DNA of 64,000 nucleotides, taken from positions 14,181,808 through 14,245,807 of the forward strand of contig NC_088315.1 in the NCBI RefSeq assembly GCF_910592395.1, written 5' to 3'. The notes under the pieces are model-generated. The model did no database searches. It was not told where the DNA came from and was given only the letters and a program-made list of their open reading frames with translations. Of the stretch, positions 11,207 through 64,000 are shown one piece after another. A program made the position numbers and the translations under genes. Source of the DNA: Lineus longissimus (Eukaryota; Nemertea; Pilidiophora; Heteronemertea; Lineidae). Numbering within the stretch: position 1 is the first letter of the stretch; every line of letters starts with the position of its first letter.

Positions 11207-13848
11207 CCCTTAAACCGCCGAATTAACATATTATAGGTAATTTCCATTGCCGAATTAACAATAGGTAAAACAATAGATTACGTATGTATAATTCAACTGC
11301 AAATTAGAGTTAGTTATGTTAGTAGTATCAACAAACAATGTATATAAAAGTTGTTTGTTCTAACCTAAACTTTCAATCTGCAAACTTGGTTTTCTTGAAA
11401 AGGATTCCAAATTAACCCCTTGTGGTCCAAAACGTAAATACAATGGTAATATCCACTCGTTATCGAATAAAGTTCAGTTCTTTTTACACAACACCTTGTT
11501 ATTGTCAGTTTATTGTATGCTTATTCTGTTTTCCAGTTACTAACTAACAGAATAAGCTATTCCCATTGTTACTGCTGGTTCCTTGCAGCATCCCGGGCGT
11601 CATATTTCCTTTGAGAAATGGTCCTACCAACGCGTCGATAGTCCTGCACCGTGTGATAGACCTCAAAGCATTCTGGCCAACACATAGGCTTGTTGCAGTT
11701 TTTGCAACCATCTGAAGTTTGCACCCTCTTTATCTTTCTATCACAACAGACAGAGCAGTCTGGCTTGTAGTTCTTGGTAGGGGTCCAGCCAAAATGTCTC
11801 TCCGTTAGGCGGAGATCCCTGTCAGCTGCAAGACTTTGACGGCCACGGCGCTTGCGGGTTGAAGCCAAACCTTGTACCAATCCATCAATAACCCCTTGTC
11901 TGAACTTCAAATGTGTCATCTTGCCCTGAGGATTGACTTTCTTGTAAAGAATGAAGCCATTTACAACTGCAACTTCACGAATACGGTGGTAGATGGGTGT
12001 ATACCACTTGTGGCTCCAATGAGGGAACTCATAGTACTGAAGCAGCTGATCCATCAGGTCAACGCCCCCCATATACTTATTGTACTCAGAAATGCAAACT
12101 GGTTTATGTACTTGTCTGAAGCCTGTAGCATCTTTCCTGTCCCTGACCTGATTGACATTCACTCCAATGCCATGGATTGTTGACAACACATTCACACGCT
12201 TATTATCCTGCCAAGTGCATGCCATGAGGTTCCCTGACTTCTTGAACAGAGGGGCTGCACCACGAGCCAGGGGAATGTCAGTAAAGTTTCTTGGATATCC
12301 AATGCGGTCAGATCTGATGGTACCACATGTTGCAATATCATGATCCATCATTTGCAAACTGAGAAAAGGTGAGGAATAAAAATTGTCATAAAACAAATGA
12401 TGTCCATATGCATGAAAGTTCTGTGTGAGGGCGTCGATAACATCGTACCCAAGTCCTAGTCCTGTCACGTTTTGTTTACCTGTGTAGGGATACCAACCCA
12501 AGCAGTAACCACTGGTGCTTTCACACAAAGCCCACACTTTCACTCCCCACTTTATGGGTTTGTTGGGCATATACTGCTTGAAAGATAGTCGTCCTTTGAA
12601 TTTCACCATACTTTCATCAATTGACAATTCTCGTTCTGGAATGTAGTGCTGCTGATATGTTGGACCAGTAATATCAAGCAGTGGGCGAAGCTTATACAAT
12701 GGATCATACCCTGGAGTATCTCTGTCTGGCTGCAACGAGTTGTCACTGAAGTGCAGGAAACAAGATATAAGTTCGTATCTGTTGCGTGTCATGTATTCAG
12801 TGAACCCACTCGTACAAGTCAGCCAGAAATCACTCCAGTAATCTTCCAGATTTGGTTTTGAGCAGAGCCCCATCCCTATTTGTATTGCTAAAAAGATCTT
12901 CACATCTGCAGCAGTTACATCTTCCCAATCATGGAAGCGGGAGCAAGTAGGAAAATCAACTGGAGTATCAAAAAAATGCAGTGCATATCGATTTGTCTCT
13001 GTAACAATCAGATCAATGGCCTCTTCCGGAAAGAACAGAGAGAAAAAATCATAAGGAGTCTTTCCCTGCAACTGTCCAGTAGCTCCATGTTCTCTGGTAT
13101 ACTGAGGGCACCATAGCGGGACTATTCCATCATGGTCACGCCACTGTAGATCACGGATCCTTGGGTCATTTCTGACTGCATTAGCCCCTGGTTGAGGTGG
13201 CGGAGCATTGCCTTGGCCTCGACCACGCCCCCTACCTCTGGCTCTGCCCCTGCCTCTGGCTCTGCCCCTGCCTCTGCCTCTACCTCTCCCTCTTTGGGGG
13301 GCAGCTGCCTGTTGCATAGCATCATCAGAATCAGATAAGGCACTGTTTGGGTCACTAGAACTTTCCCTTTCACTAGTAACATCATCAACTGGTGGGGGGA
13401 CATAAGCCCCATCATCATCATCAGAGGATGCAGCATCATTGGGACCCCCTGTAGCATCCTGTACATTATGTACACCGGGCATAGAATCATCACTGCCACT
13501 CAAATCATCGTCCAAATACTCATTTTCAGAGTCAGACTGGGCCACAAGATCAGCCACAACATCGTCTACTGTCATCCTTCTATTACTCCTGGCAGCCATT
13601 CTTCCTCAAATTTACCAAAACTTTGAGATCAAAATGCTCCGAGACTTTCTACACATCAACATACAAGAAACACTTGTAAACAACGCCTAGTGTATCGATC
13701 TACACGGAATACTAGCGCAGGACAAGCATGTGCTGCCTCCTGGCCTAACACAGTGGACCTAAAGTAGCAATAGTACAATTTCGACGATCGTCGCCTCTGG
13801 CGGTTTACCCCTATGTTTCAACGATCGTCGCCTCTGGCGGTTTAAGGG
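11207..13848 (-). mobile_element. piggyBac transposon, apparently intact
   Basis: A perfect 13-bp terminal inverted repeat, CCCTTAAACCGCC, bounds the element at 11207-11219 and (inverted) 13836-13848. Both sides carry the TTAA duplication diagnostic of piggyBac (11203-11206 and 13849-13852). A 24-bp subterminal block containing acgatcgtcgcctctggcgg is repeated at about 13782 and 13821. A related short repeat (gccgaattaaca) occurs at the other end. The only ORF is a full-length transposase. Intact ends, exact duplications and an open ORF suggest a young and possibly mobile copy. Confidence 0.96.
11569..13599 (-). CDS. piggyBac transposase (PGBD4-like)
   Basis: The 676-aa protein excises and reinserts the element at TTAA sites by a DDD transposase. 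The N-terminus is acidic and Ser-rich (1-95), followed by an Arg-Gly repeat tract (103-130) probably encoding nuclear/nucleic-acid binding. The catalytic core runs from about 180 to 550. Asp328 lies in 'LSIDESMVKFKGR', Asp405 in 'LFYDNFYSS', and Asp514/Asp517 in 'KYMGGVDLMDQ'. The C-terminus (about 612-655) is a Cys-rich zinc-binding domain ('CSVCCDRK', 'CKNCNKPMCWPEC') that binds the ends. All catalytic residues are present and there are no frame breaks. Length is somewhat above the common 550-650 range because of the RG tract. Confidence 0.95.
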   Translation of the reverse strand: MAARSNRRMTVDDVVADLVAQSDSENEYLDDDLSGSDDSMPGVHNVQDATGGPNDAASSDDDDGAYVPPPVDDVTSERESSSDPNSALSDSDDAMQQAAAPQRGRGRGRGRGRARGRGRARGRGRGRGQGNAPPPQPGANAVRNDPRIRDLQWRDHDGIVPLWCPQYTREHGATGQLQGKTPYDFFSLFFPEEAIDLIVTETNRYALHFFDTPVDFPTCSRFHDWEDVTAADVKIFLAIQIGMGLCSKPNLEDYWSDFWLTCTSGFTEYMTRNRYELISCFLHFSDNSLQPDRDTPGYDPLYKLRPLLDITGPTYQQHYIPERELSIDESMVKFKGRLSFKQYMPNKPIKWGVKVWALCESTSGYCLGWYPYTGKQNVTGLGLGYDVIDALTQNFHAYGHHLFYDNFYSSPFLSLQMMDHDIATCGTIRSDRIGYPRNFTDIPLARGAAPLFKKSGNLMACTWQDNKRVNVLSTIHGIGVNVNQVRDRKDATGFRQVHKPVCISEYNKYMGGVDLMDQLLQYYEFPHWSHKWYTPIYHRIREVAVVNGFILYKKVNPQGKMTHLKFRQGVIDGLVQGLASTRKRRGRQSLAADRDLRLTERHFGWTPTKNYKPDCSVCCDRKIKRVQTSDGCKNCNKPMCWPECFEVYHTVQDYRRVGRTISQRKYDARDAARNQQ

Positions 13849-13852
13849 TTAA

Positions 13853-16556
13853 CTCTCTACCCATCAGTGCTTGGGCTGGGGATACTCCAGTAGCAACATG
13901 GGGGGTGTTCTTATATTGGAAAAGGAAATTTTCTACTTCCTTTTTCCAATCTTTCTTCTCAAGTTTGGCAATTCTAATGCATTTTAGCAAGGTTTCATTG
14001 AACCGTTCAACGTTGCCGTTGCTTTGGGGCCAGTATGGCACGCTGGTTTTGTGTTCAATTCCAAGGTACTCCAGAAACGCATCGAAACCTGCAGCGTTAA
14101 AAGGAGGTCCATTATCACTTCTAACAGAAAATGGGAGGCCATCCGTTTGAAACATTGCATCCATAACCCTTGTCACATGACCTGTGTCAGTTTTTTTGAG
14201 TAAAACCACCTCAGGCCACCTGGAATAGTAGTCAGTGGTTACGAGCAAATGCTCGCCATTGCACACTTCCAGCAAATCTACTGCTAAATCAAACCACGGT
14301 CCGTCGGGTAATGCGGTGGACTTTATTGGTTCCGGTTTGGCACGTGCTCCAACCAATTGGCACGGGTGGCAGGCTCTGATAAAGGACTCGACTTCCTTAT
14401 CGATCCCTGGCCACCAAGCCTTATTTCTAAGCCGGGCTTTGGTCCGTACCATGCCCTGGTGTCCTTCATGTGCCAGCCTTATCATTTTGTCTCTCAATTT
14501 CTCCGGAATGACAATCCTGTCCCCACGCATTACGAGACGCCAGTACAACCATAACTCATCTTTTACAGCATGGTAAGGTGACTGACTCAGATTAGACCAA
14601 TCACTAGTCAAAATACACTCTTCAATAGCCTGTAGGGTTGCATCATTTGTAGATTCTTGCTCAATTACACTGGGTGTGATGGCAGCAGGCACTGCTTCAG
14701 TCACCACACTACGAGCAAATTCTTCAGTCTGCTTAGTTTCAACCTCAACGTTGCCAGAGTCCTCTATGGGCAGCCTACTCAACACATCAGCATAATTGTC
14801 TTTCCCTTTTATGTATTTCACCGTGTAGTGAAATTGCTGCATGAATAAAAGCCATCGTTCAATTCGAGCAGAGGGGGGCTTGGATCCTGGGCTGAGAACC
14901 CTTAACAAAGGCTTGTGGTCGGTCCGGATTTCGAACGTGGCCCCTAACAAAAATAAGATAAACTTCTCGCACGCCCACCTGACTCCAAGCGCCTCTCTCT
15001 CGAATTGAGAATACCTAGACTCCACATGAGTCAACTTTCGACTGGCATAATGCACTGGCTTGAAACTACCATCATGCTGCTGTTGTTCTAAAATCGCACC
15101 CAGACCAACTGGTGATGCATCCGTTACTACACGGGTCCTAGCACCCTGCTTAAAGTAAGCCATTACTGGACTTGAAGTCAACTTAGATTTTACATCTCTG
15201 AAAGCTTTGTCATGCACAGGCAACCACTCCCATTTGACCTGAGACCCTGTTAAGTCCCACAAAGGACTTGTGATGATAGCAAAATTCACTACAAATCTGG
15301 CACAAAACTGTGCTAGGCCTAGAAAGCTCCTAAGTTCTGCTTTGGTTTTAGGCTTAGGTGCCTCCACAATAGCTTTCACTTTGGCATCAGATACCTTCAG
15401 ACCCTTTGAAGTCATGTTGTGGCCCATGAACACCATACTGTCTCCCACATTGCACTTGGGGAAATTCAAGGTGAGTCCATGTTCATGCAATCTCTTGATA
15501 ACCACTTCCACTCGCTCATATAGCTGGGCATAGTCCTCAGCTACCACGCGGATGTCATCGTGCAGGTTGCATGCCCCTGGACAACCCTTTAGAATTTGCC
15601 CGATGATACACTGGAATTTCTCAGTCGCCATATTCATGCCAAAATTAAGGCGTTTGTACCGATACAACGAATTGGGCCCAGCAAATGTAGTTATATCCCT
15701 ACAGCTTTCATCCAATTCAATCTGATGAAATGCCATGTTTAAGTCTAGTTTACAAAAAACTCTTGCTCCAGAAATCTCTTGGAGCGTCTCATCAACCGTA
15801 GGTACAGGGTGCTTCTCTCTTTTAATGGCTTCATTGGCCCTTCTCATGTCCAGACACAACCTGATGTCGCCACTTGGCTTTTCGACAACCACCAAGGGGT
15901 TAACCCAAGAGGTAGGACCAGATATTGGCTCAATCACATCGAGGCCTTCCAACTCAGCCAACTTGTCACATACTTTTGCCCTCCGATTGAAGGGGATCCG
16001 TCGATGCTGGGCTACAGGCTTGACATTCTGGTCTATATGCAATTTCAATTTGTAATTCTTAAGTTTCCCTAGGCCAGTGAAAACCTGTGGATACATCTTT
16101 CTAAAACTATGCAAAATTGAATGCACTTCCTTGCCAACATCGCAGGCATTCACTTCATACCCTACTTTCAGCAAATTCAGGTTCTCCGATGTAGGCCTAC
16201 CCAGCAGTGTTGGCTGGTCCCAAGGAATTACAATGAAGTCAGCAACACAACAAGCACGTCCCGCCTGCAATCTTAGGGCACATTTTACCAAGATTGTCAG
16301 TGGCTCCGTCGCACAATATGTGAAAACCTTGCTATTGGAAGCACGTAAATGCACATCTATGTCGGCAGTTACCAATTTGAATGTATTTTCCGACATTAAG
16401 TTGCAAGTTGCTCCTGAGTCCACGACTACATCAGTGCCAACGTTCCCCACTTTAACGCGCAAAACGTCACTTCACAAATTTCTCCTTGGGACGTCACTAC
16501 CAGTATCCTCAATTGACCTGAATGCATAGTATGCTGCCTCGTCATCCTGGGCCTGG
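13853..16556 (-). pseudogene. Gypsy Pol: protease, RT, RNase H, integrase core (interrupted)
   Basis: The long frame (about 880 aa, open from 16462) shows retropepsin 'VVDSGATCNL', RT with 'LDLNMAFHQIEL' and the catalytic 'NLHDDIRV', RNase H with 'VVTDASPVGLGA' and 'RTDHKPLLRVL', then integrase. Integrase has the HHCC block ('HEGHQG...CHPCQ') and the DDE residues in 'FDLAVDLLEV', 'VRSDNGPPF' and 'GNVERFNETL'. It is the K02A2.6-like gypsy type common in invertebrates. One in-frame TGA occurs near 16468, just before the protease, and piggyBac at 13849 cuts the C-terminus. The reading frame is in phase across the empty TTAA site, so before the piggyBac insertion the integrase was continuous. Confidence 0.9.
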
Positions 16557-23017: not shown

Positions 23018-23318
23018 AGTGAATGAAACACATTACTTCCAGGTGTGCATAATTAATTAAGGCCCTCCTGCTTTTATGGTTGCATGACATGTACAGATGA
23101 CCTGATCTACATCACAACTTTTGCTGAACCCGCCGCCTGGCTCTAACAAGCCAGTTGCTAGCCTGATCAGGTAATCAAGTTGTCAAACACATAATTGGCT
23201 ATATCTTCAAAATGGATGGAGCTAATTGCATTTGGTTTTCTGTATTGTATAAAGTGTTAGGTACACTTTTGAAATCGTCTTACAGCAGAAAATGGCAAAA
23301 AACCTTGATATTTGACCT

Positions 23319-24062
23319 TTAAAACCAGTGAATGCCTCATATGCTGTACCTTTGATCCTAGGATTGTAACCTCTATTTCTGGTGTACGCTGAACACATGA
23401 GTGCATATGACCACAAACACTTTGGCAAACCAGCTTGTAATAACAAACACCGAGCCATTTCAAATAATGACCTCCAAGATCGCTCTACTGTACCATTCTG
23501 ATGAGGTGAGTACGGAGCTGATCGTTCATGTTTGATCTTGCTACTGATGAGAAGGGATTCAAATGATTCTGATGTAAACTCTCCCCCCTGATCACTCCAA
23601 TCCGTTTCACTGTACCATAAAAGCTAACATCAGCAAGAAACTTTTGTGTTGCACGCAAAGTATCACTCTTGTTCTTCAAAAAATACAACACGATTAAACC
23701 AGAGTAGTCATCCACACACCCTAAGACATACTTTCCTTAGCAGGGGTCTACAGGTCCTGCCAAGTCAAAATGTTCCAATTCTACAATAGAAGTTGCCCTT
23801 CTGTCTGGTGTCTTATTGATTATCTGAACCATCTTACCAATAATGCAAATACTACAATCAAATTCTTTTCTATCTTGAATTACCATACCATCTACCACAT
23901 CTTTCAGTTTCAACACGTCCTTGGTGTTACAATGTCCCATGATCTCATGCCAATCTTTGAGAGAATGTTTAGCTGACTTCTGTGACACACTAGCAGCACT
24001 ATTCAAGTAGTACAGTTTGCCCTGCTTTTTGATTGAAAATTGGACACCCTTTTTAGCTCAGC
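23319..24062 (-). pseudogene. Copia pre-integrase and integrase N-terminal part
   Basis: The pieces lie in shifting frames. 24062-23737 carries the GAG-pre-integrase/zinc block ('DWHEIMGHCN...FDCSICIIGK'). 23715-23485 carries the start of the integrase core ('MDDYSGLIVLYFLKNKSD'). 23463-23319 carries 'ARCLLLQAGLPKCLWSYA...GTAYEAFTGF', which leads into the Kolobok insertion. An in-frame stop near 23737 and a frame change near 23600 show decay. The 5' end is abrupt at about 24062. Confidence 0.8.
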
Positions 24063-43505: not shown

Positions 43506-44519
43506 TCAATAAGGCACGTGCTCGGTGTCCATTTGCTTGTCCAGTATATTCCTCCAGATCAGGTTGTTGACGCCCAGGTTCAACATCATCAACCTGAGGC
43601 TCGTTTCTGTCCACTGCGATATTGTGCAGCACAGCTGTTGCTGCAATTTGCAGGTATCCTCTGGATTTCTCAAACGACTTTCAAGGTGTAAGGTATGGAA
43701 CCTACGTTTCAACCTGCCAATCGTTTGTTCAACCAAAACCCTAGTACGCTTATGAATATGAGCTGAGTTGTAACGCCGCTCAGAAGCTGTGTGCGGATTC
43801 AGAAGTGGTGTCATAAGCCAGCTTCGGCACAGATATCCGCTATCACCAAGGATGAACCCATCAATAGCACCACTCTCCATGAGATCCCAAATCTGAGTTG
43901 TCCTCAATATTCTGCTATCGTGTGCACCTCCAGGCCATCTTGCCACGATTTTGATGAATTTCCCCTTGTGATCACAAATGACTTGCACATTAATTGAATG
44001 ATGTCCTTTTCTGTTGATATAGTCGATATCGTTCTCATGTGGAGAACACATCCAAACATGAGTTCTGTCCACGCAGCCTATCACTTCTGGAAAGTGTACA
44101 CGTCTCATCCTTTAGAATCCATCCTTGATTTGGGTTATATTTCGTGCATCAGGGAATTTCACATAGTCACCTATCTTCTCTGCGAGAGAATCCGTCACAC
44201 GATGAATAGCACGCCAAGCAGTTTGCGGAGATACTTGTAGAGGATCCCCAACAACATATTGGAAGGTGCCAGTTGCATAATATTGAAGTGCTATCAACAC
44301 CTGCTGAGATGGGAGTAGGGCGAAGTTTCTCCGTGTAGGATGTTCAATATCCGGGGCAACAATGTCGGTTATCAACATTATCCCCTCCCTCGAGAATCGA
44401 TACCTCTTAACAAGTTCTGCATCACCAAAAATGTCCAAAGGGTTTCGACGATCACGGAAAACGCATTCTCTTCGCATTGCTCTACGCAATTCAGCAAGTT
44501 CCAGGATCCGTCTCGCCAT
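43506..44519 (-). pseudogene. Harbinger A transposase, nonsense codon and frameshift
   Basis: The gene is close to copy C (18151-19131) throughout. It has Asp in 'VIGCVDRTHVW', Asp in 'FILGDSGYLCRSW' and Glu in 'RVLVEQTIGRLKRRF'. A Tyr codon (TAT in copy C) is TAA here at 44109-44111. A 4-nt deletion near 43655 shifts the C-terminus after 'NPEDTC'. The equivalent Gly in 'VDGTH' is Arg. It is inactive and could be served only by another copy. Confidence 0.88.
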
Positions 44520-44726
44520 CCTTACTCTTCGAAGTCCAGAGGTAAAAATTGATTTTAGAACGGTGCTAAGGATTTAGAAGTACCCAAGACCTATTCTAGA
44601 AAGAGTAAGCAACTAGGAACCTTGCTAAGCTTAGAACGGTTTTATGGAATAGAATTAGCATGGAACTAGAGATGGAATGAAGTTTAGCAACCAACTAGGC
44701 CTAGAATGCTTTTATGGAATTGGCCC

Positions 44727-47700
44727 CTGGCTGCTGAAGGGCAAAGGGGAAATTGTTGGCGTGACATCATGCTACGAAAACAAGAGAAAGCTCTGGTAAC
44801 AGCAAATATTGGAAGCCATTCACTGCTAATATGTTGTTTATAGAAATGTTTGTGCTTGGAGCGCCATATGCGACCTATCTCAACATCATTGAATTTCACC
44901 CAAATTATAGCTGGTTTTTCTTTATTGTCTCTGAACTCAATGTGTTTTATGATACATGAAGCTCCATTGGTAAGGCCATCTTCCACATCTAAATTCACTG
45001 TGCAGTCATATTGAAGACCAATTGCCAATTTAAGGTTGGTCATCAAGTTACCTGTAAAAGTCATTTTTGTGTATTTTTCAGAATTGGCAAGATGCCAGTA
45101 AGCTTTTTCCTTCATATTGTTAGGAACATTGCCTATTATGCCTGTTTTTGAATGTACTGTGATTTTTTCTGTCGTTGCCAATTCATATATAACTTCGTTG
45201 AAGTTGTTTACTTCTTCATTTAATCTGAACATGTGTGGAGCTTGTAAAGGATAATCAGGAGAAGATTTGGCAATTATTCTTTCCTTCAATATGTTAATGT
45301 CTTCAGTAGTTTGATTACCTTGTCGGAGTCTGTTTAACAGTTCGGCATAAATTCTATCATCTTTCTGGCGCATTATTTCAGTTAATTCATAAATGAAGAA
45401 GTCTTCCCAAAGATGAGTTCCCAAGGGACAATAATTTTCACTGAGAATTTCAAAAATCCATCCATATGCACATGGTTTTAGTTGGAAGAGGTCACCTACA
45501 AGGATAACATGGAGATTACCAAAGAATATGTGTTTTTGATCTTTTTCAGGGATTTGTTTCAGTTGGTTTAATCTATCACTGATCTGTTTTAACATCATAT
45601 TACTTACAAGGGAAATTTCATCAATCATAACCACAGATAAATGCTTATATTTGTTATAAGCAGTTTGCAATTGCTCAGTACTGTATGGCTGAAATGGCTG
45701 AAATGGCTGGTGGACAGGTATATTAAATGCACTGTGCAAAGTAAGCCCTTCAATGTTAAATGCAGCAGTACCAGTTGGTGCACATTTGAGTACTCTGATG
45801 TGGTCAAGATCACCAACTGTTTGTGTCACAAGATATCTTTGCAGTGATTGGTACAATGTGCGAATAAGAACTGATTTTCCAACTCCTGCTCCTCCAGTTA
45901 AGAATACACGCAATGGTTTCGTTTCGTTTCGTATCGAATGGTTTATATGAATGAAGACATCTCTTTGTTTACTATTTAGTATTCGCAACAAAGCATAATA
46001 ATCCTCATCTGGAATACATCCTCGTAGCAGTTTATCATTTACAGTAGTTCCCATATGTAAGTCATTGCGTATATCGTATTGTTGTTGTTGTGTTGTTCGC
46101 TTTGGGTCGAAGAAATCAAATTGGTGACTAGGCGTAGAGCATTCCAATTGATCATCACATTCTTGTTGTGATGTAGATGGAGCAATATCTGCTTCATTAT
46201 CTGATTCATCTTGTTGTGGTCTCTGCATGGCTATATCTACAGCATTGGAGTGGTTGTCATATTTCAATTGTTTTGGCAATATTCGAGTTTTGATACTATC
46301 AAAATGTGCTGAATAAGTGGCATAGGTCCCAATCAAATCATTTATTTCATCGCGCCAAGGCCAAAAAAGAAGGAGTTGTTCTCGAAAGTAGTTTTCAGGA
46401 TCATTTTTTTCACTGTAACGAACATAACGTATAACCTTTGCTTTATCTCTTGATTTTATTTGTATACCACTAGGTAAAGTAATGTTAACATAATCAAGTG
46501 CATCTTCTTCTTGAGTGGAAAGGTTAATGGAACTGTTGTCCATTTCACAATCTAAGCTGTCTTCAGTATTATCTTCATAAGGATATAAATCAGTTTTATT
46601 CATGGATTTAGGATATATGATATTTAGAGTTGCTATGTAGTCAGCTAAACAGTAACGATTTAGATCTTTTGGACGTTTTGAATACCTAATAATATCACTG
46701 GAAGAATAGATATCTGTTGAATCTCCTAGTTCTTTAAGTACTGTTTCAGATTTCAGTAGGCGGGTTCTATCTTCTGGAGGAGAGGTATTAATAAAGACAA
46801 CCTGTCTAGTTTTTTTAGTTAGTGGTAATTGCAAGGTCAAGTAAGCTGCTTCTTGAGCAGATACTTCTGTGGCATTCAGAAATTTATTTCCAATTGATCG
46901 AACTTGTGTTCGGAGAGTGCTATTTCCTTGTCGCGCTTCTTTACAAGCATTGTGTAATAGTGAACTCATTCCTCGTTGACTCTTGGAGATATATTCAGTT
47001 ATGTAGACTGCACAGCTGAAAGGATCTAGGATAAATTGGATGTCATGATTTGCTCCCCATGCTGTGATTAGATTTTTCATATAAGGATTTATTCTTATCT
47101 CCTGAAGACTTCGTTTTAAGAAAATTTTTGGACTTTTAATTGATGTTCGAATTGCAAGGATATAATCTTCATATGTACAATTCACCTCATCCAAGAATTC
47201 CTCAAAAGACTGATCACAGCCATCTTTTTTTGAATCCAGACTTATTTTGATTCTTTTATAGAAATCAGTATATTTTGCAGGGTCATCTCCATCATATGGT
47301 TCAAGCAAAACTGTTCTAGGCATAGGTGGGATAGGAAAACCAAATCGGCACAATGCTTTTCCCTTCTTTCGACAAGATCTTGAATGTTTATGTTTTTGCA
47401 TGAGTATTAGTTGTAATATTTCTTCTGAGACATTAACTGAACATGAGACATGTTGATCTACAAACTTTACTATGTCAGTGTCTGAATCAATGCCATATCT
47501 AGGAGCATTTCTTATCCAAGTCATCATGTGTATGTGAGCAGATCCTCTATGCTGGAACTCAACCCTATATACAAAATCATCAATAATGCCTAGTGGGTGA
47601 AATGGGCCTCGTAGCACATTTTTAATGAATTTGTCTACTCTGTCATTAAAATAGCGAGCGCATGTTACAGGATCTTGGCTTATTAGTCTAGTTTTATCTT

Positions 47701-47755
47701 CCCAAGTTAGTTTATTTTGTTTACATTCTTCTGTATAATCTTTTTTGTCATTTAA
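44727..47755 (-). CDS. Helentron Rep-helicase, main part
   Basis: About 1010 open codons between the Kolobok and Harbinger A insertions. The HUH nuclease motif is 'HRGSAHIHMMTW', about residues 79-89 of the frame, and the paired tyrosines are in 'CAVYITEYISKSQRGMSS'. These nick the origin strand and hold it covalently during rolling-circle transposition. The SF1B/Pif1-like helicase has Walker A 'LTGGAGVGKSVLIR', Walker B 'VVMIDEISLVS' and 'LVGDLFQLKP'. The last helicase motif lies at 39161-38972. The first nine residues of the open frame (47782-47756) come from the Kolobok end. No stops in 1000 codons indicates a fairly recent element. Confidence 0.92.
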
Positions 47756-48056
47756 AGGCCATATATCAAGGTTTTTTGCCATTTTCTGCTGTAAGACGAT
47801 TTCAAAAGTGTACCTAACACTTTATACAATACAGAAAACCAAATGCAATTAGCTCCATCCATTTTGAAGATATAGCCAATTATGTGTTTGACAACTTGAT
47901 TACCTAATCAGGCTAGCAACTGGCTTGTTAGAGCCAGGCGGCGGGTTCAGCAAAAGTTGTGATGTAGATCAGGTTATCTGTACATGTCATGCAATCATAA
48001 AAGCAGGAGGGCCTTAATTAATTATGCACACCTGGAAGTAATGTGTTTCATTCACT

Positions 48057-49360: not shown

Positions 49361-51744
49361 TTTGCCAAGTATGATAATGAGGTCATGCCATTTGGTATCT
49401 GCCGAACTGAGAGATATAAACCACTGTGGTATACCAAGTTGGCGAATCATAGCTAAATATATTTTTTACAATGGCTAAGGTAAGGAGGGGAGTTTCTTAT
49501 AGTGCGAAAGATATAATAACCCTCGTCAAGTTTAGCTATCTGTTTTTGTGTTTCTGGTTGCAGTATTTCCTGAGCGCTGTACCATTCTCCTTTCCTCTGT
49601 ACACATCTCATTGCTAATGTACCTTTATCACAGACTTGCTTGATTTGTAACTTCTTTGCGTTGAAAAATAGATTAGGGACATTCTGACTAACACGACGAT
49701 CTTCAGCCCGCAGTTGCCACTTACAAACATCACTGTAGTGCAGTTTGGGATTATTTGAGTTCTTTTCTCGATCATGTGGCATCCTTTCACCACAAAATAT
49801 TGTGGGAAAGGATAAATATTCAGCATCTTCATCTTGAATGAGACTGAGAAGGACTTCGATCTTCACCTGGAGCAAATGTTAAAGGACGAACACGTTCAAT
49901 GTTTTGGTCATCTAGCATTGTGTCAAGGTTTCCAGAGGCTGTTTCATCTGGATCAAATTCACTAAATGTGTCTGATATATCAGAATCAACATCATTATCA
50001 TCATTTATATGGGAAATATTATTTGTCTCCATTTTGTCAGTGTCTGAAGAATTCTTATTTATTGCTTGCATCCAAAGGTCATCAATGGTAACATCAGCAT
50101 CTTTGTATAGTTCTTTGGTCAGAAGATAATGCAAAGCAGCTATGACTGCCATTGGCCGAACATTCTCTTTATATTGATTTTTCTTGTACACTAATCTTTT
50201 TTTTAACGATATTGGAATTGTCTCAGCCATGTCTAAAGTTCGAGGTAAGGATCTGATAACTGGTGCTATGTCTACAGGAACATTCACTACTGCACCTTGT
50301 AGCTGTAGTTGATTACCTCTAACTGATAAATTGTCATGAAAGGAATTCGAAGTGAAATTAGACGTTCTTCTAGAGGATGCAACTGTAGCTCTGGAGGTTT
50401 TCTTGGAAATTGGAAACCATTTATGAAAGCTAATTTTGGTATCTTCTTCTGTTTCAAGGCGTTATGACAAGTATTGCACAACCATTCACATGAATCAACT
50501 GATAATTTGCGAGTGAAGCATTTAGCTTTATAATCATCATCAACTGATTTGAATGTTGCAGTGATTTTGATTACTGAATGAGAAAACCATGTCTGATGAC
50601 AGCAAGTGCAAACATATATTGGTCCAGTCAAGAGAGATTTGTGGAACTTGTCGATACAGACATCTAAATTTGGCCCATATTTTTGCAAATCCTTTTTACT
50701 ATTTTGATTGCTTTGATTAGGTACATTTTTATTAAGAGTACGCGTACACTTTTGTTTACAACATCTATCATCATCACTGATTTTCCTCTTCATACCTCGA
50801 GATTGTATTTTGTTGCTTTGCTGACAATCAGCCTTTGTTATCACTTGTGACTTCATAGCTGGCAATGCTGGTATATAATTATTGTCTTTATAAGTCTGCA
50901 GTTTCTTTGCTTGGTCATGAAAATAATTGTCTATGTTATTTGTAATTGCTGTGGTTTTTATAATATTTCTGGTAGTGGTAGTATTATTGTTATAATTATT
51001 AGAAATAGTTTTTCCCTCAATAATTTTTGCTGAAGTTGTAGGGGTCATATGAGGGCAAGTAAGCACCGCACTATTCGGTAATTTTTCTTCTGCTGCAACA
51101 GAGTATGTATGGATAGATTCAACTGATGTGACGAATTCATAATGATTCTGTTTATTTCTAATATATAGCGATTTTTGTCCAACTATCACACTAGAATCAA
51201 CAATTGTGGGAGTATATCGATGCCATTTCCATTCAGCATCATAATCATTTTGTTTATAAGTATAGATATCTGTTTTTAGAAAATGGGCTGTTCCAGTAAT
51301 TTCTAGACTAGTTGCCCATGTGCCTGATAATTCCATCAGGGTGTTTTCAATTGTTGAACATGACAAAGGCAAAAGAGCAGTAAAAAGATGATTTTGGAGT
51401 TTGATGTGATGAACTACTTTTTCTCTGATCAAACGATGATGTTGCTCAGATCCAAAAACTGCATATGATACACAACGGAAAAAGCAGTTACCATCTGGTT
51501 CTATTGGTTGGACAGTTCTTGGTCTGCATTGTTGAAGATGAGTATGAGTTTCTTCACAATACCATGTTTGTATTAATGGAGGCATTGATGTAAAAAGATA
51601 CTGTTTTTGCCATTGCCATATCGGATCAATGGCATGGAATGTGAACATCTCAAAAGACGTTCTTTTAAATATTAGACTACTGCTTGGGGAATCTTTGTAC
51701 AAGCTCAATTTGTCATTTTCATGCTTGTTTATGATTGATTTCAT
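49361..51744 (-). pseudogene. Helentron OTU domain and Rep N-terminal region (frameshifted)
   Basis: The frame 51744-50287 has an OTU-type cysteine protease, with 'EPDGNCFFRCVSYAVFG' (Asp84, Cys87) and a candidate His in 'NHYEFV', followed by a Cys-rich, DUF6570-like segment ('YVCTCCHQTWF', 'WLCNTCHNALKQKKIPKLAF'). It continues as 50287-49829 ('APVIRSLPRTLD', acidic linker), 49875-49453 ('QDEDAEYLSFPTIFCG') and 49457-49361 ('AMIRQLGIPQWFISLSSAD'), the Helitron-like N region, up to the Kolobok insertion. Three one-base frame changes (near 50310, 49870 and 49460) break this part, although the downstream Rep-helicase frame is clean. Confidence 0.82.
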
Positions 51745-51891
51745 TCCAATAGATGTTGAAGTATCTTTTAGTACAGGTGGTTTACCATTTGCAATTGTAT
51801 TCTGAAAGGATGAAATTAATGGGCATGACGAAACATCTGGAATGTTAAATATAGGCTGTGAAACGGAAGCTTTTATACGAGGTTTTTGACA

Positions 51892-57969: not shown

Positions 57970-58862
57970 AACTCGCAACAGACAGAGTTACAAAACCAAG
58001 TTTGTCGACCAAAACCTTGCCAAAATGAGGATTTTTCCGAGAAACCACCCACTTGGTGCCTGGGCATCTACTCTTTGACAAAATATACAAGCCTTCCTCT
58101 CCGACTTCACCATGCGTCTGGGTCCCATGACCCAATATTGATCACAAAGAGAAGTAATGACTGTATCCACACCAGCATGTTTTAACTTAATATGCTCCCA
58201 CCTGGTCAACAGAAAGGCCAAGTGACCCTTTGGCACAATCACTGGGTGGATCTCCCCATAAGTGAGTCCTGAATGCTGAATACGACCACCAACTCGCATA
58301 AGTCCATCATCGTCGATGAATGGTATCAACGCTGAGAGAGGAGAAGTTTCAGGTGGTGACTGACCACCTCTCAACAAAGACAACTCCTTCCTATACTTCA
58401 CCTCCTGAACATGACGAAACAAATGCAGTTTTGCCTCAACCAATTCCTTACGGGACAACTCTTGATCAGTACGACTCTCAGTAGGATGTGTCAGGTTATG
58501 CAGAAAGCTGCATGGGAACAGCACGAAAAAATATTGGCCATCGAGTAACCAAGCGAACCTGCTCCACCGGCAAACATTTGATCGCTACAGCCATAACAAC
58601 CTCAACAGGTGCAACTTCACTCTGAAGAAGTTGTTCAACACTCTGAAACGAAATCAGTGATGAATCAACTGTTGCATCAATCACTGGTTCAGACAACCAA
58701 TCAGGTCCAGACAACCACAGAGTAGAACTAACCAACTCTTCAGCTAAGAGACCCCTTGTCAACAAATCGGCAGGATTTTCCTTGTCTGGGCAGTGTGAAC
58801 AGAGAGAAGTATCAGTCAACCTCTGGATCTCAGTGACTCTCTTAGCAACAAATGTCTCAAAT
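57970..58862 (-). pseudogene. BEL/Pao retrotransposon pol fragment
   Basis: Minus-strand frames 58862-58496 and 58524-57988 carry the end of the RNase H region ('FVAKRVTEIQRL', 'CPDKENPADLLTRGL', 'WLSGPDWLSEP') and the integrase zinc-binding domain ('EHIKLKHAGVDTVITSL', 'YWVMGPRRMVKS', 'CIFCQR'). These are specific to BEL/Pao pol. A frame change near 58510 joins them. Both sides are truncated: a foldback lies at 58863 and unrelated sequence follows 'CQRVDAQAP' near 58040. Confidence 0.85.
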
Positions 58863-60124: not shown

Positions 60125-60283
60125 TCAATGAAATTACTGTAGAAATCATCATGTCAGCTTTAACAAAATATCGATCGTATTACGGGGAAAACACTACCTC
60201 GTAAACCAGCCAATACGAGGAAAATCCAATTAAGTCATTTCGCAGTAAGTGACTCAGTATCATACTCTACTTTCTAGTTGTGA

Positions 60284-60369
60284 CTCTCTTAGAAGAGAAT
60301 CCAATCAATCTGACCTAGATATTCTCTTAGAAGAGATCCAATGACCTAGTTATTCTCTTCTAAGAGAAT
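60284..60369. repeat. Palindromic TTCTCTTAGAAGAGA repeats upstream of capsid gene
   Basis: Three copies of an 18-bp near-palindrome (attctcttagaagagaat core) lie at about 60284, 60321 and 60352, the last inverted relative to the others. A tgacctagNtattctctt unit repeats at 31-bp spacing. They lie 63-150 bp upstream of the putative capsid gene and could be regulatory sites or part of an element end. Confidence 0.7.
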
Positions 60370-60431
60370 CTTATTGATTACTACGTTTGCGAAATGAGTG
60401 CCACATAATTTTACTAGTAAATAAATAGAAA

Positions 60432-61688
60432 ATGGCAACAGGATATTTATTAAATACCGAAAGGGCACATAAGATTCCACTTGGTTTGAAAGCTGAGAGG
60501 CAGCATCATATCATTACTCATAACCCCTCATCTGCTAACCCCAAAGAAACACTGTATGTTAGAATACCGGCATTGCGGGAGAATACATTCTTTGTACCTA
60601 AATCTCTTTATCTGTCTGCTGATGTAACCATTTCTGGTGATTCTAAAAATAGTGTTGTAAATAATCTTGGTAGAAACCTGATTTCAAAGATGGTGGTTAA
60701 GTGGGGAACAGAGCAGATATTTGACCTTGACGAATACAGTCATTATTCTACATTTAAAGATCTGTGGCTAACTGGAGAAGAAAGAAATGATGGAGTTTTT
60801 CAGGGTATTCAGTCAAAAAATCTTAGAGAATTAAGATCAGGAGTCGCTGAAGCTGATGTCACTGGAGAAACAGCTAATGAAAAGACTTTAAAGAAAGTGT
60901 TTGACAAGAAGTACAAAATACCATTAGATTTTGAACTATTCCATCATCATGCTCCATTTTACAAGTTTCCAATTCAAGAAGATGTGATTATTGAAATCAC
61001 ATTAGCACCAAAGGAAGAGATCATAGTTACCGCAACCACAGCTAGCATGGGCTACAAACTAGAGAATATTTGTTTTGAATACGACACTGTAACCAACAAA
61101 ATGATTGCTAGTCAATTGAGTAACAAGTACAATTCTGGATTCTCAATATTTTATGATTGGGTAGACCATTTTAAGACAGTCAATGTTACTGCTAATGAAA
61201 CACTAATTAATGAGAACATCAACTTTCCAAGAATGTCTATTAAAGGATTATTATTACTATTTGTGTCTGACTATGTAGATGGAGCTAGAGATTCAGAGAA
61301 GTTTGAAAACCCTAACATAAGTAAAGTGCAGATCACAATAGAGGGTGTTGCCAATCAGGTGTTCCCAGAAGGAATGAGAATGATGGATCAATGGGAGGAG
61401 ATCAAGAAACATTTTATGTCTGAAGATTTGAAGAAAACTCATGACTGTAACATGACCATGGAGAAATACTATGGTGATTCTAATCACTATGGTTTATGGT
61501 TGGACCTGAGAACTTCTGAAGATAATCGTCTACACGGATCAGGAAAGAAGCTCCAGAACACAAAAGATGGTATTCAATTATCTATTACAAAGAGATCTGG
61601 AAAGGGACCATACAAAATGCACATATTCGTGGTTTCTGACGCCCAGGTTAACATTCAGAATTCTCAGATTGCTTCACTCCAACACTAA
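60432..61688 (+). CDS. Putative major capsid protein, Polinton/adintovirus-like
   Basis: A 418-aa, intron-free ORF with no stop. I do not recognise a catalytic motif. Assignment as a double-jelly-roll capsid protein rests on its place beside the packaging ATPase and minor-capsid-like ORFs, its size, and its beta-rich, low-complexity-free composition. Segments such as 'LGRNLISKMVVKWGTEQIFDL' and 'YDWVDHFKTVNVTANETLI' recall hexon-like proteins of invertebrate Polinton-like viruses. At 418 residues it is shorter than the roughly 550-650 of typical Polinton capsid proteins. The upstream context 'ttttactagt...aaATGG' is echoed before the next gene (61763). It could also be another structural protein. 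Confidence 0.6.
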   Translation: MATGYLLNTERAHKIPLGLKAERQHHIITHNPSSANPKETLYVRIPALRENTFFVPKSLYLSADVTISGDSKNSVVNNLGRNLISKMVVKWGTEQIFDLDEYSHYSTFKDLWLTGEERNDGVFQGIQSKNLRELRSGVAEADVTGETANEKTLKKVFDKKYKIPLDFELFHHHAPFYKFPIQEDVIIEITLAPKEEIIVTATTASMGYKLENICFEYDTVTNKMIASQLSNKYNSGFSIFYDWVDHFKTVNVTANETLINENINFPRMSIKGLLLLFVSDYVDGARDSEKFENPNISKVQITIEGVANQVFPEGMRMMDQWEEIKKHFMSEDLKKTHDCNMTMEKYYGDSNHYGLWLDLRTSEDNRLHGSGKKLQNTKDGIQLSITKRSGKGPYKMHIFVVSDAQVNIQNSQIASLQH

Positions 61689-61789
61689 GGTGTTGCAAGA
61701 ACAAAGTTCGCTCCAACACTGAAACAAAGTTCGCTCCAGCACTGAATACTAGATAAATGAGTTTTACTAGTGATTTTCTAAGTAATTAA

Positions 61790-62026
61790 ATGGATACACC
61801 AGGAAAGAAAGATATCATAAATACACTGTATCAAAGTTTACTGTTGGCATCAACAACAATTGGTTACTCTATGTTACTGAAAAGGTTCTTGAGAATCAAT
61901 ATTGGTCCCCCAAGTCAGGCCAACCTAGAGGAAATTCTTAAACTGGGCGGAACTGTAGCTATTAGCAATGGAACATTAGAGTACCTTTACGATCAAGGAA
62001 TCCTACCCAGAAATATTATGAAGTAA
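61790..62026 (+). CDS. Small hydrophobic protein of virus-like block
   Basis: A 78-aa ORF starting ATGG after 'taattaa', 101 bp after the capsid stop. It has a membrane-like stretch 'SLLLASTTIGYSMLLKRFL' (about residues 16-34) and an amphipathic C-terminal half ('LEEILKLGGTVAISNGTLEYL'). Short proteins of this type, with a hydrophobic helix followed by 'KLG.AVA', are regular in invertebrate adintovirus/Polinton-like gene blocks from memory, but the role is unknown. The spacer before it contains a tandem 22-bp duplication (acaaagttcgctcca core, 61702-61745). Confidence 0.6.
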   Translation: MDTPGKKDIINTLYQSLLLASTTIGYSMLLKRFLRINIGPPSQANLEEILKLGGTVAISNGTLEYLYDQGILPRNIMK

Positions 62027-62083
62027 GAATAATTTACTTATTTGATAAAAGGTAAATTTGAAAACGAAAATTTACTTAACTAA

Positions 62084-62851
62084 ATGGTTACTGTAATGAA
62101 CATAGATTCAAGTGACTATCCAGATCAGAGTTCAAGTGATTTAACAGTCAATCTCAAGACTGAAATTCAAGATGCATGTAGCATCACTTTAACTTTTGCA
62201 GTAATACCTTGTACATTCTACAACATAAGTGCAGCCAGGGAGAATAACCGAATCAAAGTTAAGGGGTTTGATGTGGCAGAGATTACGCTACCAGATGGTC
62301 TCTATGACCTACAGAGCTTTTCAAAAGTATTTGCGGATAAGTTGAAAGAAAATAGTATGAGTAGAGGTGCTGTCAGATTTGACCTTGAAGAACCAACAGG
62401 TAAGGCCATCTTACACTTCCTAAAGAGAAAAAATGAGGCGCATTATCAGATCTATTTTATTGGTAAAAGTAATGAATTATTTGGCATGAAATCAGAATGG
62501 CCTTACCCTTTAGACAATAAAAGTAAGGATGATGTTGTAAGCGAGAAACCCATCAATTTTAGACCAATTAACCATTTTGTTTTTCACTGTGACATAATCG
62601 AATCTAATAGTGTATTAAGTAATGGTGAAGCATCTGATGTGCTAACCACAAGACCAATAAAGGAAGCTAATTTTGGAGATTTAATAGCATACACATTTGA
62701 GAAACCAATAGCAATTCCCTGTAAACCAAGATTCAATAAGCTGAATATTCGCTTAACTGATGAAAAAGGTGACATCATCGATCTTAATGGTCATAATGTA
62801 CAGTACCAATTGGTATTAACTCGAGCTATGCTCTCAGCGACACATCATTGA
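62084..62851 (+). CDS. Putative minor capsid (penton-like) protein
   Basis: A 255-aa ORF, start context 'aactaaATGG'. The architecture fits the minor capsid family of Polinton-like viruses. An N-terminal beta-rich 'LTVNLKTEIQDACSITLTF' is followed by 'ITLPDGLYDLQSFSKVFADKL', a middle 'HFVFHCDIIESNSVLSNG', and a C-terminal 'RLTDEKGDIIDLNGHNVQY' block typical of such proteins. It would form the vertices of an icosahedral shell. No catalytic residues are expected. Spacing to the neighbours is 57 bp and 22 bp, in keeping with compact viral gene packing. Confidence 0.65.
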   Translation: MVTVMNIDSSDYPDQSSSDLTVNLKTEIQDACSITLTFAVIPCTFYNISAARENNRIKVKGFDVAEITLPDGLYDLQSFSKVFADKLKENSMSRGAVRFDLEEPTGKAILHFLKRKNEAHYQIYFIGKSNELFGMKSEWPYPLDNKSKDDVVSEKPINFRPINHFVFHCDIIESNSVLSNGEASDVLTTRPIKEANFGDLIAYTFEKPIAIPCKPRFNKLNIRLTDEKGDIIDLNGHNVQYQLVLTRAMLSATHH

Positions 62852-62873
62852 AATTAAAATTCGTTGAAATTAA

Positions 62874-63332
62874 ATGGCTGGCATTGGCATGTTATTTGGA
62901 TCTGCAATAATCAATGGATTAGCATTCACTGGATCCGGTTACCTTTTTAAAAATCTAGACAAGAATGGCTATGAGACTGAAATGAAGAGACATAATTTAG
63001 CTCAAGAGCAATTGCAAAGAGCATCCACAGAATTGGATGAGCATAGGAAAAGTACCATTGACTTCGTTAACCTTGAATTAAAGAGAGAAAGAGACGCTTC
63101 TATTGATTTTAACAATACTGATTCAGCACTTACTGTTTACAATCATTTACATCCAGAAAGAACTATTGTACTACCTCAGCGACCACAATTAAGTGATTAC
63201 TACCAACCTAGTGATGAAATGAAGAAATACGAGTACCTATGGATTATCCTAGGACTTAGTGGTTTAGGGTTAATAATTTATAATTTTACTAGGGTTAGAA
63301 AGACTAAGACCATTGATGAGAAGCGGGACTAA
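62874..63332 (+). CDS. Two-membrane-segment protein of virus-like block
   Basis: A 152-aa ORF that starts 22 bp after the minor-capsid stop ('gaaattaaATGG'). It has an N-terminal hydrophobic, Gly-rich segment ('GIGMLFGSAIINGLAFTG', about 3-20), a long charged helix or coiled coil (about 30-85), and a C-terminal membrane helix ('YLWIILGLSGLGLIIYNFT', about 122-140) with a basic tail. This layout suits a virion membrane or internal protein. It ends 3 nt before the stop of the convergent ATPase gene begins, so the two genes overlap by 4 nt (63329-63332). Confidence 0.6.
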   Translation: MAGIGMLFGSAIINGLAFTGSGYLFKNLDKNGYETEMKRHNLAQEQLQRASTELDEHRKSTIDFVNLELKRERDASIDFNNTDSALTVYNHLHPERTIVLPQRPQLSDYYQPSDEMKKYEYLWIILGLSGLGLIIYNFTRVRKTKTIDEKRD

Positions 63333-63949
63333 GATTTTTGATGTGAAAGAGTAAATCCAAATGGATGTTGTAGTCTAATGATCAGTTTTGATCCTTTTTT
63401 CATCTTAAGTTCTTCTATGTAGTACTGTCTTTTCTCCTTAGGAATAACACTGTTTTCTTCTAAGGCATCTTTCATGGCTGATTCATCCTTGTTAAAGAAC
63501 AGGACTAAAATTCTTATGTTCTCTCTGTAGTCCTTGACAACTGAATTGTACTTCTGAACTAGTAACCAAACAGTGAGATTGTAGTGCCTGCCGGAAAAGG
63601 CAAGATTACATAACTCGGACACCTTCTTTTTTGTGTCTCTCAAATTAGCACAGTCATCAATGAGGAATAATGTGTTAGAACCAGCAAAGGTCAGAGTAGC
63701 AAACTGAAGCACAAGGTCCAAATTACTGGCCACAGCTTCGGGATTAACTATGTAGACGTTCTTGTCTTGGTAAATCCATTTCCTTTCATATGTCTTATTG
63801 TTGAAATATGTTGGACAGAAAATGACTATGTTCTGGAACTTGTGCCGATACTCCTTTTCTAAGAGGTCAAGGGCAAAATATGTCTTACCACAATTGGTGA
63901 CACCAGAAATTAACATATTGTGTGGCTCGTAAATAAATACTTCACTCAT
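63329..63949 (-). CDS. A32/FtsK-HerA-type genome packaging ATPase
   Basis: A 206-aa P-loop ATPase. Walker A is 'GVTNCGKT' (16-23), the TNCGKT form characteristic of Polinton and virophage-type packaging ATPases, and Walker B is 'TLFLIDDC' (93-100), with the acidic pair at 98-99. A later 'LLVQKYNSVV' gives the sensor-like Gln. The enzyme would pump DNA into capsids. It is on the opposite strand to the capsid genes and convergent with the membrane-protein gene, with a 4-nt overlap. Its start codon lies 4 bp from the start of the next plus-strand gene (63954). Complete, no breaks. Confidence 0.88.
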   Translation of the reverse strand: MSEVFIYEPHNMLISGVTNCGKTYFALDLLEKEYRHKFQNIVIFCPTYFNNKTYERKWIYQDKNVYIVNPEAVASNLDLVLQFATLTFAGSNTLFLIDDCANLRDTKKKVSELCNLAFSGRHYNLTVWLLVQKYNSVVKDYRENIRILVLFFNKDESAMKDALEENSVIPKEKRQYYIEELKMKKGSKLIIRLQHPFGFTLSHQKS

Positions 63950-63953
63950 TTAA

Positions 63954-64000
63954 ATGGATGTAAAGGATGACACACAGCAGTATCTAAGGGATTTGTACTA
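63954..64000 (+). CDS. Start of a further ORF, runs off the window
   Basis: An open frame starts at ATG 63954 ('MDVKDDTQQYLRDLY') and is still open at the window end. It is divergent from the ATPase, with only TTAA between the two start codons (CAT-TTAA-ATG). A second ATG is at 63958, in another frame. Too short to identify. Confidence 0.45.
   Translation, partial: MDVKDDTQQYLRDLY

What the first reader, a model, noticed from the sequence alone, without database searches (positions are those of the whole stretch)
60432..64000. Virus-like morphogenesis module (capsid, minor capsid, membrane protein, packaging ATPase)
Five intact, intron-free, tightly packed ORFs differ sharply from the decayed transposons to their left. 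The ATPase carries the TNCGKT Walker A and IDDC Walker B seen in Polinton/adintovirus packaging enzymes. The 255-aa protein has the layout of their minor capsid proteins. The putative capsid protein, at 418 aa, is unusually short for a Polinton. Full openness suggests recent integration or an active element. Integrase, polymerase and protease would have to lie beyond 64000.
Basis: partly seen in the sequence, partly recalled or inferred. Interest (0 to 1): 0.9.

Follow-up and report, generated by a model that had tools for sequence, protein, structure and literature searches.

The report
Endogenous virus capsid genes, poxvirus-like starts
The end of this transposon-rich, probably animal DNA window holds an intact set of genes that look like the particle-building genes of a small integrated DNA virus, and most of them begin with the signal that poxviruses use to start their late genes, hinting at a poxvirus-like way of being switched on.

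Summary
Window 60432-63949 has five intact, uninterrupted ORFs; a sixth opens at 63954 and runs off the edge.

The 206-aa protein is a packaging-type ATPase (Pfam Pox_A32 E=6.8e-15; 131 homologues). The 418-aa protein has 114 homologues, 92 of them 400-450 aa. Of 45 members scanned, 22 match Capsid_N, a major-capsid-protein domain; two pass Pfam's cut-off, the window's own does not (E=0.012). The 255-aa "minor capsid" call rests on layout only; structure prediction was off.

Best reading: the virion module of an endogenous small DNA virus with a giant-virus-like capsid. Polinton/adintovirus membership is unproven: polymerase, integrase, protease and terminal repeats would lie beyond 64000. Closest published kind: "meldvirus" chimeras (PMC11071296).

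New here: five of six gene starts read TAAATG, the poxvirus late-gene signal, against 3 of 154 other ATGs in the block (P=4e-7; 6e-5 in the strictest control). All five have T at -10. Two genes diverge with four bases between start codons. No relative's DNA was available to test conservation.

The parts
60432..61688 (+). [quoted passage not shown]
   Evidence: 114 homologues; Capsid_N PF16903 in 22 of 45 family members at E<=0.1, best E=1.7e-5; window protein itself E=0.012, below cut-off
61757..61789 (+). 10-codon mini-ORF whose ATG is also preceded by TAA and whose TAA stop abuts the ATG of the 78-aa ORF
   Evidence: sequence; could be chance
61790..62026 (+). 78-aa basic ORF, unknown function; TAAATG start
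   Evidence: no Pfam or PHROGs match; pI 9.1
62084..62851 (+). 255-aa putative minor capsid (penton-type) protein; TAAATG start
   Evidence: 10 homologues; no Pfam match itself, weak DUF5901 match in 2 of 11 aligned sequences; role inferred from size and position
62874..63332 (+). 152-aa putative membrane-associated protein; TAAATG start
   Evidence: most hydrophobic 19-residue stretch scores 1.58, starting at residue 121, just under the 1.6 threshold used
63329..63949 (-). 206-aa A32/FtsK-type genome-packaging ATPase; TAAATG start
   Evidence: Pfam Pox_A32 E=6.8e-15; PHROG 2666 'terminase large subunit' E=1.2e-11; 131 homologues, the 120 listed all carry PF04665
63954..64000 (+). start of a sixth gene (MDVKDDTQQYLRDLY...), divergent from the ATPase with 4 nt between start codons; TAAATG start; cut by the window end
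60282..60370 (.). three copies of a TTCTCTT-AG-AAGAGAA type near-palindrome just upstream of the capsid gene, the third in reverse orientation; possible regulatory or replication site
   Evidence: D1, I4, I7; function not tested

Best explanation
The block is the virion-building module of a small endogenous dsDNA virus of the Polinton-like (Bamfordvirae) supergroup, integrated in a transposon-rich, probably animal genome. Its major capsid protein is of the giant-virus (Capsid_N) type. Most likely working, in steps: capsid protein trimers build the shell and the 255-aa protein caps the vertices (inferred). The 152-aa protein sits at an internal membrane or core (inferred). The A32-type ATPase pumps the genome in (inferred from its family). 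The genes are late genes whose transcripts begin at a TAAAT initiator overlapping the start codon (the sequence pattern is shown; its use is inferred). Replication and integration genes lie beyond 64000 (inferred).
For: Five intact ORFs. ATPase: Pox_A32 E=6.8e-15, PHROG 'terminase large subunit' E=1.2e-11, 131 homologues. Capsid: 114 homologues; Capsid_N in 22 of 45 members, two above the curated cut-off, while each other Pfam family matched 1 of 45. Capsid and ATPase homologues share a contig length in 7 cases, against a mean of 1.85 (range 0-4) in 20 length-shifted controls (mean summed by hand), which suggests linkage in relatives. The capsid has a supported sister (P0001, 100/99) and a short end branch of 0.043. 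TAAATG at 5 of 6 starts against 3 of 154 other ATGs.
Against: The window's own capsid protein scores Capsid_N below cut-off (E=0.012). Capsid profiles found no solved structure up to E=10, and the 255-aa profile only weak ATP synthase matches, best E=0.23. The ATPase also passes the Pfam Zot cut-off (E=1.3e-4), so the domain alone is not virus-specific. No relatives in IMG/VR, GTDB contigs or phages (only chance-level hits), though these tools warn that records very near the window may be left out. No protease, polymerase or integrase in the module.
Confidence: 0.78

Rival explanations
1. A conventional Polinton/adintovirus: protein-primed PolB, rve integrase and adenain-type protease beyond 64000, with host RNA polymerase II expressing the genes.
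For: ATPase motifs and gene set fit. Published Polintons carry capsid, penton, ATPase and protease genes (PMC4028283, passages).
Against: The capsid family is Capsid_N-like and mostly 400-450 aa. TAAATG at 5 of 6 starts puts T at -3, against the usual animal start context (Kozak rule recalled), and spacings of 4 and 22 nt leave little room for separate intergenic promoters.
Confidence: 0.35
2. A fragment of an integrated larger nucleocytoplasmic (pox- or mriyavirus-like) virus rather than a small Polinton-like element.
For: Capsid_N-type capsid, A32-type ATPase, poxvirus-type TAAATG starts.
Against: The 255-aa and 152-aa proteins match no giant-virus family (only a weak DUF5901 match in 2 of 11 for the 255-aa family). 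Gene content beyond the module could not be read in any relative, so this is weakly tested.
Confidence: 0.15
3. The TAAATG pattern is an accident of AT-rich spacers or serves translation only (an in-frame stop just before each start).
For: Upstream 30-nt stretches are 77% A+T. ATPase and the next gene share one palindrome, so they are not independent. The capsid gene itself lacks it. One copy of one element only.
Against: With each stretch's own composition, P=3e-6 for 5 of 6 and 6e-5 for 4 of 5 without the shared palindrome. T at -10 in all five, while 23 of 62 TAAATG sites in the whole window, these five included, have it.
Confidence: 0.3
4. Host genes or domesticated capsid genes retained for a host function.
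For: All frames are intact among transposon remains.
Against: The compact, uninterrupted layout with divergent starts 4 nt apart and the many divergent homologues look like a mobile virus.
Confidence: 0.04

Closest known systems
Meldviruses of Buck et al. 2024 (PMC11071296), e.g. Meld23486
   Same: Midsize DNA viruses, some joining adintovirus-type PolB and integrase to virion proteins resembling those of poxviruses and megaviruses (parts 1-4 of 8 read, plus passages and the Figure 7 legend).
   Different: TAAATG starts are not mentioned in what I read.
Polintons/Mavericks and Adintoviridae
   Same: Packaging ATPase plus major and minor capsid genes (PMC4028283 passages; PMC11071308 parts 1-2 of 6).
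   Different: Capsid_N-like short capsid; PolB, integrase, protease and terminal repeats not seen.
Mriyaviruses (yaravirus, gamadviruses; PMC11253617)
   Same: Small (35-45 kb) genomes related to giant viruses, with a double-jelly-roll capsid (passages).
   Different: Known from an amoeba, a haptophyte and metagenomes; their HUH endonuclease and other markers are not in view here.
Mavirus and endogenous mavirus-like elements (PMC8547959, PMC10945749)
   Same: Integrated capsid-forming elements, one type of which carries the late-promoter motif of a large DNA virus (passages).
   Different: That motif is TCTA of CroV in a protist; here it is the poxvirus-type TAAATG, and no helper virus is known.

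Membership tests
Bamfordvirae virion module | A32/FtsK-HerA packaging ATPase | tested here: met
   Pox_A32 E=6.8e-15 over residues 7-174; PHROG 2666 E=1.2e-11; the 120 listed of 131 homologues all carry PF04665
[quoted passage not shown]
   Capsid_N in 22 of 45 family members, 2 above cut-off; no structure prediction possible; no PDB match
Bamfordvirae virion module | single jelly-roll penton/minor capsid protein | tested here: inconclusive
   10 homologues, no informative family match; position and size only
Polinton / Adintoviridae | protein-primed PolB and rve integrase | not testable with these tools
   would lie beyond 64000; of 58 window ORFs of 120 aa or more, 57 were Pfam-scanned: no PolB; rve only in an RT-bearing ORF (13814-16471) and a below-cut-off fragment (23225-23623)
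Polinton / Adintoviridae | terminal inverted repeats | not testable with these tools
   right end outside window; own genome could not be searched (13 tries, last)
Polinton / Adintoviridae | adenain-type protease | not testable with these tools
   none among the five complete module ORFs; would lie beyond 64000
Adintoviridae | hexon recognisable by BLASTP to reference adintoviruses | not tested
   no reference sequence at hand
Poxvirus-type late genes | TAAATG overlapping the start codon, T at the tenth nucleotide upstream | tested here: met
   5 of 6 starts, T at -10 in all five; the capsid gene start is not TAAATG
Poxvirus-type late genes | 5' poly(A) leader on transcripts made by a viral RNA polymerase (recalled) | not testable with these tools
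   no RNA data
Virophage | dependence on a large DNA virus | not testable with these tools
   promoter resemblance only
Mriyavirus | HUH endonuclease and other conserved mriyavirus genes | not testable with these tools
   would lie outside the window

The most novel reading that the evidence does not exclude
The element is an animal counterpart of a virophage: an integrated, capsid-forming satellite whose virion genes are keyed to the late transcription machinery of a poxvirus-like large DNA virus of the same host, as endogenous mavirus-like elements of type 4 are keyed to CroV in a protist.
Probability: 0.13. Interest if true: 0.92.

Novelty: new variant of a known kind. Interest (0 to 1): 0.56.

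Why it matters
Integrated capsid-encoding viruses are known in animals, but how their virion genes are transcribed is, as far as I know (recalled), little studied. A poxvirus-type late start on nearly every gene of such a module would mean either that the element shares ancestry or modules with cytoplasmic poxvirus-like viruses and kept their start signals, or that it depends on such a virus. The first bears on how giant and small DNA viruses exchange parts; the second would be a virophage-like system in animals. Both can be tested by mapping transcript 5' ends and by reading the starts in relatives.

Tried and rejected
Truncated Polinton hexon: rejected, because 26 of the 27 closest homologues are 414-420 aa. 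Retrotransposon-like pieces at 57988-58819 as the element's own integrase: set aside; 57988-58524 matches Integrase_H2C2 below cut-off (E=1.5e-4, 22.3 of 25.5 bits), 58496-58819 matches nothing, and the BEL/Pao label rests on recalled sequence style. Bacterial origin because seven homologues are named Bartonella: judged probable contamination; their contigs (2169 bases or less) were not seen. Phage origin: no match for the ATPase or the DNA; only chance-level hits for the capsid. Plasmids: no match. Early poxvirus stop signal T5NT: one site on each strand of the block, not informative. PHROGs on 45 capsid members: 11 families, none in more than two members, best E=0.0013. NCBIfam on 34 ATPases: weak P-loop/HerA-type matches, best E=2.5e-4. 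PDB matches of the ATPase profile: four pentatricopeptide-repeat chains at E=4.7e-9 to 4.9e-7, with no single stretch passing; treated as repeat artefacts, not used. TAAAT at -14 and -10 before the capsid gene: not counted, as TAAAT is common in the block (14 on +, 10 on -).
Full report
What is there. Window 60432-63949 contains five complete ORFs: 418, 78, 255 and 152 aa on the + strand and 206 aa on the - strand. A sixth ORF starts at 63954 + and is cut by the window end. The last 4 kb are 35-36% G+C against 42-43% in the 4 kb before, but five other 2-kb stretches of the window are as low or nearly so (0.345-0.369), so composition alone marks nothing. Of 58 ORFs of 120 aa or more in the window, 57 were scanned with Pfam, a few of them from their start codon only. 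Outside the module the matches are mostly mobile-element-like: reverse transcriptases, DDE transposases (DDE_Tnp_1_7, DDE_Tnp_4), a hAT dimerisation domain, a Helitron-type helicase, Myb/SANT and MADF domains, an ALOG domain and a gag-like zinc knuckle. No PolB was found. The host is eukaryotic and, by this mix, probably animal (inferred); the species is unknown. Rfam (gathering threshold) and ARAGORN found nothing.

ATPase. The 206-aa protein matches Pfam Pox_A32 at E=6.8e-15; it also passes the Zot cut-off (E=1.3e-4) and matches PHROG 2666, 'terminase large subunit', at E=1.2e-11. A database search gave 131 homologues at E<=0.001; the 120 listed all carry PF04665. In an alignment of 34 (33 homologues plus the window's) the Walker A G and K, the DD of Walker B, the RH of a GRH motif and a later QK are invariant.

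Capsid. The 418-aa protein has 114 homologues at E<=1; 92 are 400-450 aa long, the rest shorter, down to 234 aa. Of the 27 closest, 26 are 414-420 aa and one is a partial record. Scanning 45 (44 of the 114 plus the window's) at E<=0.1, 22 match Capsid_N, which Pfam describes as the N-terminus of a major capsid protein (that it is the giant-virus type is recalled); ten other Pfam families match one member each. P0106 and P0089 pass the curated cut-off (24.9 and 24.4 bits against 24); the window's protein does not (15.7 bits, E=0.012). Against this, neither the 45-member profile nor a 5-member one matched any solved structure up to E=10. In a tree of the 45 the window's protein pairs with P0001 (100/99) on a short end branch of 0.043, so there is no sign of fast decay.

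Other proteins. The 255-aa protein has ten homologues at E<=0.01. Two of the eleven aligned sequences, both relatives, match DUF5901 weakly (best E=1.1e-4, 21.7 of 26.4 bits). Its assignment as a penton rests on size and place. The 152-aa protein has one fairly hydrophobic C-terminal stretch (1.58, under the 1.6 threshold used), so 'membrane protein' is plausible, not shown.

Linkage in relatives. Among 114 capsid and 120 listed ATPase homologues, seven pairs share an identical longest-contig length, against a mean of 1.85 (range 0-4) for 20 shifted comparisons; in all seven the listed sources overlap, by my reading. Two of these contigs (1948 and 2606 bases) are shorter than the 3.5 kb from capsid start to ATPase start here, so gene order would vary. 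A 1606-base length is shared by one 255-aa and one ATPase homologue; no 255-aa and capsid pair shares a length.

Start signals. Five of the six gene starts read TAAATG: 78-aa, 255-aa, 152-aa, ATPase and the sixth gene. Of the other 154 ATGs on both strands of 60300-64000 three do, one of them the mini-ORF at 61757. Fisher P=4e-7; binomial P=3.6e-8 at the window's rate. Taking each gene's own 30-nt upstream composition, P=3e-6, and 6e-5 when the sixth gene is dropped because it shares the palindrome CATTTAAATG with the ATPase. Vaccinia late promoters are described as TAAAT, usually followed by G and overlapping the start codon, with a T at the tenth nucleotide upstream (PMC11980589, passages); TAAATG is also reported as the late start of an entomopoxvirus D13-type gene (PMC3061580, passages). 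All five starts here have that T; 23 of 62 TAAATG sites in the whole window, these five included, do. Of 50 ATG ORFs of 100 aa or more in the window, four start with TAAATG, three of them in the module. Spacings of 22 nt (255 to 152) and 4 nt between divergent start codons leave little room for ordinary separate promoters. Against it: the capsid gene does not have TAAATG, and this is one copy of one element with no relative's DNA available.

Interpretation. The module most likely belongs to an endogenous Polinton-like virus with giant-virus-type capsid proteins, close to the published 'meldvirus' kind in which adintovirus-type PolB and integrase are joined to poxvirus- or megavirus-like virion proteins (PMC11071296: parts 1-4 of 8 and passages read). 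I could not compare sequences with those genomes. In Cafeteria, the endogenous mavirus-like elements that carry the late promoter motif of the giant virus CroV are the ones that CroV reactivates (PMC8547959 and PMC10945749, passages). By analogy, TAAATG starts would fit an element read by a poxvirus-like polymerase, its ancestor's or a helper's. My searches for TAAATG with Polinton (one unrelated paper) and for Polinton, Maverick or adintovirus with late promoters (12 of 53 and 15 of 39 papers listed, listings only) showed no title or abstract start reporting this, within an open-access library.

Contamination note. Seven homologues are named Bartonella sp. CL..QHWL in NCBI/UniRef (P0002, P0115, P0236, P0237, P0238, P0240, P0241; 75-94% identity), one of them labelled 'ATPase/DNA packaging protein'. 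Their longest contigs are 744-2169 bases. They are probably eukaryotic contaminants in bacterial assemblies (inference; the contigs were not seen).

Noticed in passing
homologues P0002, P0115, P0236, P0237, P0238, P0240, P0241: Proteins of this module are filed in NCBI/UniRef under several Bartonella sp. CL..QHWL assemblies on contigs of 2169 bases or less; probable cross-contamination that propagates wrong names.
   Followed up: partly
window:51895-52635 (-): ORF with a DVETNPGP motif near its N-terminus (NPGP at residue 36; 2A-type label recalled) followed by a Herpes_teg_N match (E=3.6e-8), next to an OTU-protease ORF (50290-51891) and a Helitron-type helicase ORF (44687-47821); may be one protease-bearing Helitron-type element.
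   Followed up: partly
window:3716-7287 (-): ALOG-domain ORF (E=1.1e-18) next to a reverse transcriptase/RNase H ORF; suggests a DIRS-type retrotransposon (label recalled).
   Followed up: partly
window:60282-60370: Three copies of a 7+2+7 near-palindrome (TTCTCTT AG AAGAGAA), the last inverted, directly upstream of the capsid gene.
   Followed up: no
window:59995-60124: Imperfect 57-nt inverted repeat with a 16-nt spacer (75% complementary), possibly a foldback element or part of the left edge of the provirus.
   Followed up: no
window:61757-61789: Ten-codon mini-ORF, itself with TAAATG, whose stop TAA forms the TAAATG of the 78-aa gene.
   Followed up: no
window:18118-19128 (+) and 43509-44573 (-): Two copies of one DDE_Tnp_4 (Harbinger-type, label recalled) transposase in opposite orientation, 90-95% identical in protein; the second is split into two ORFs.
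   Followed up: yes
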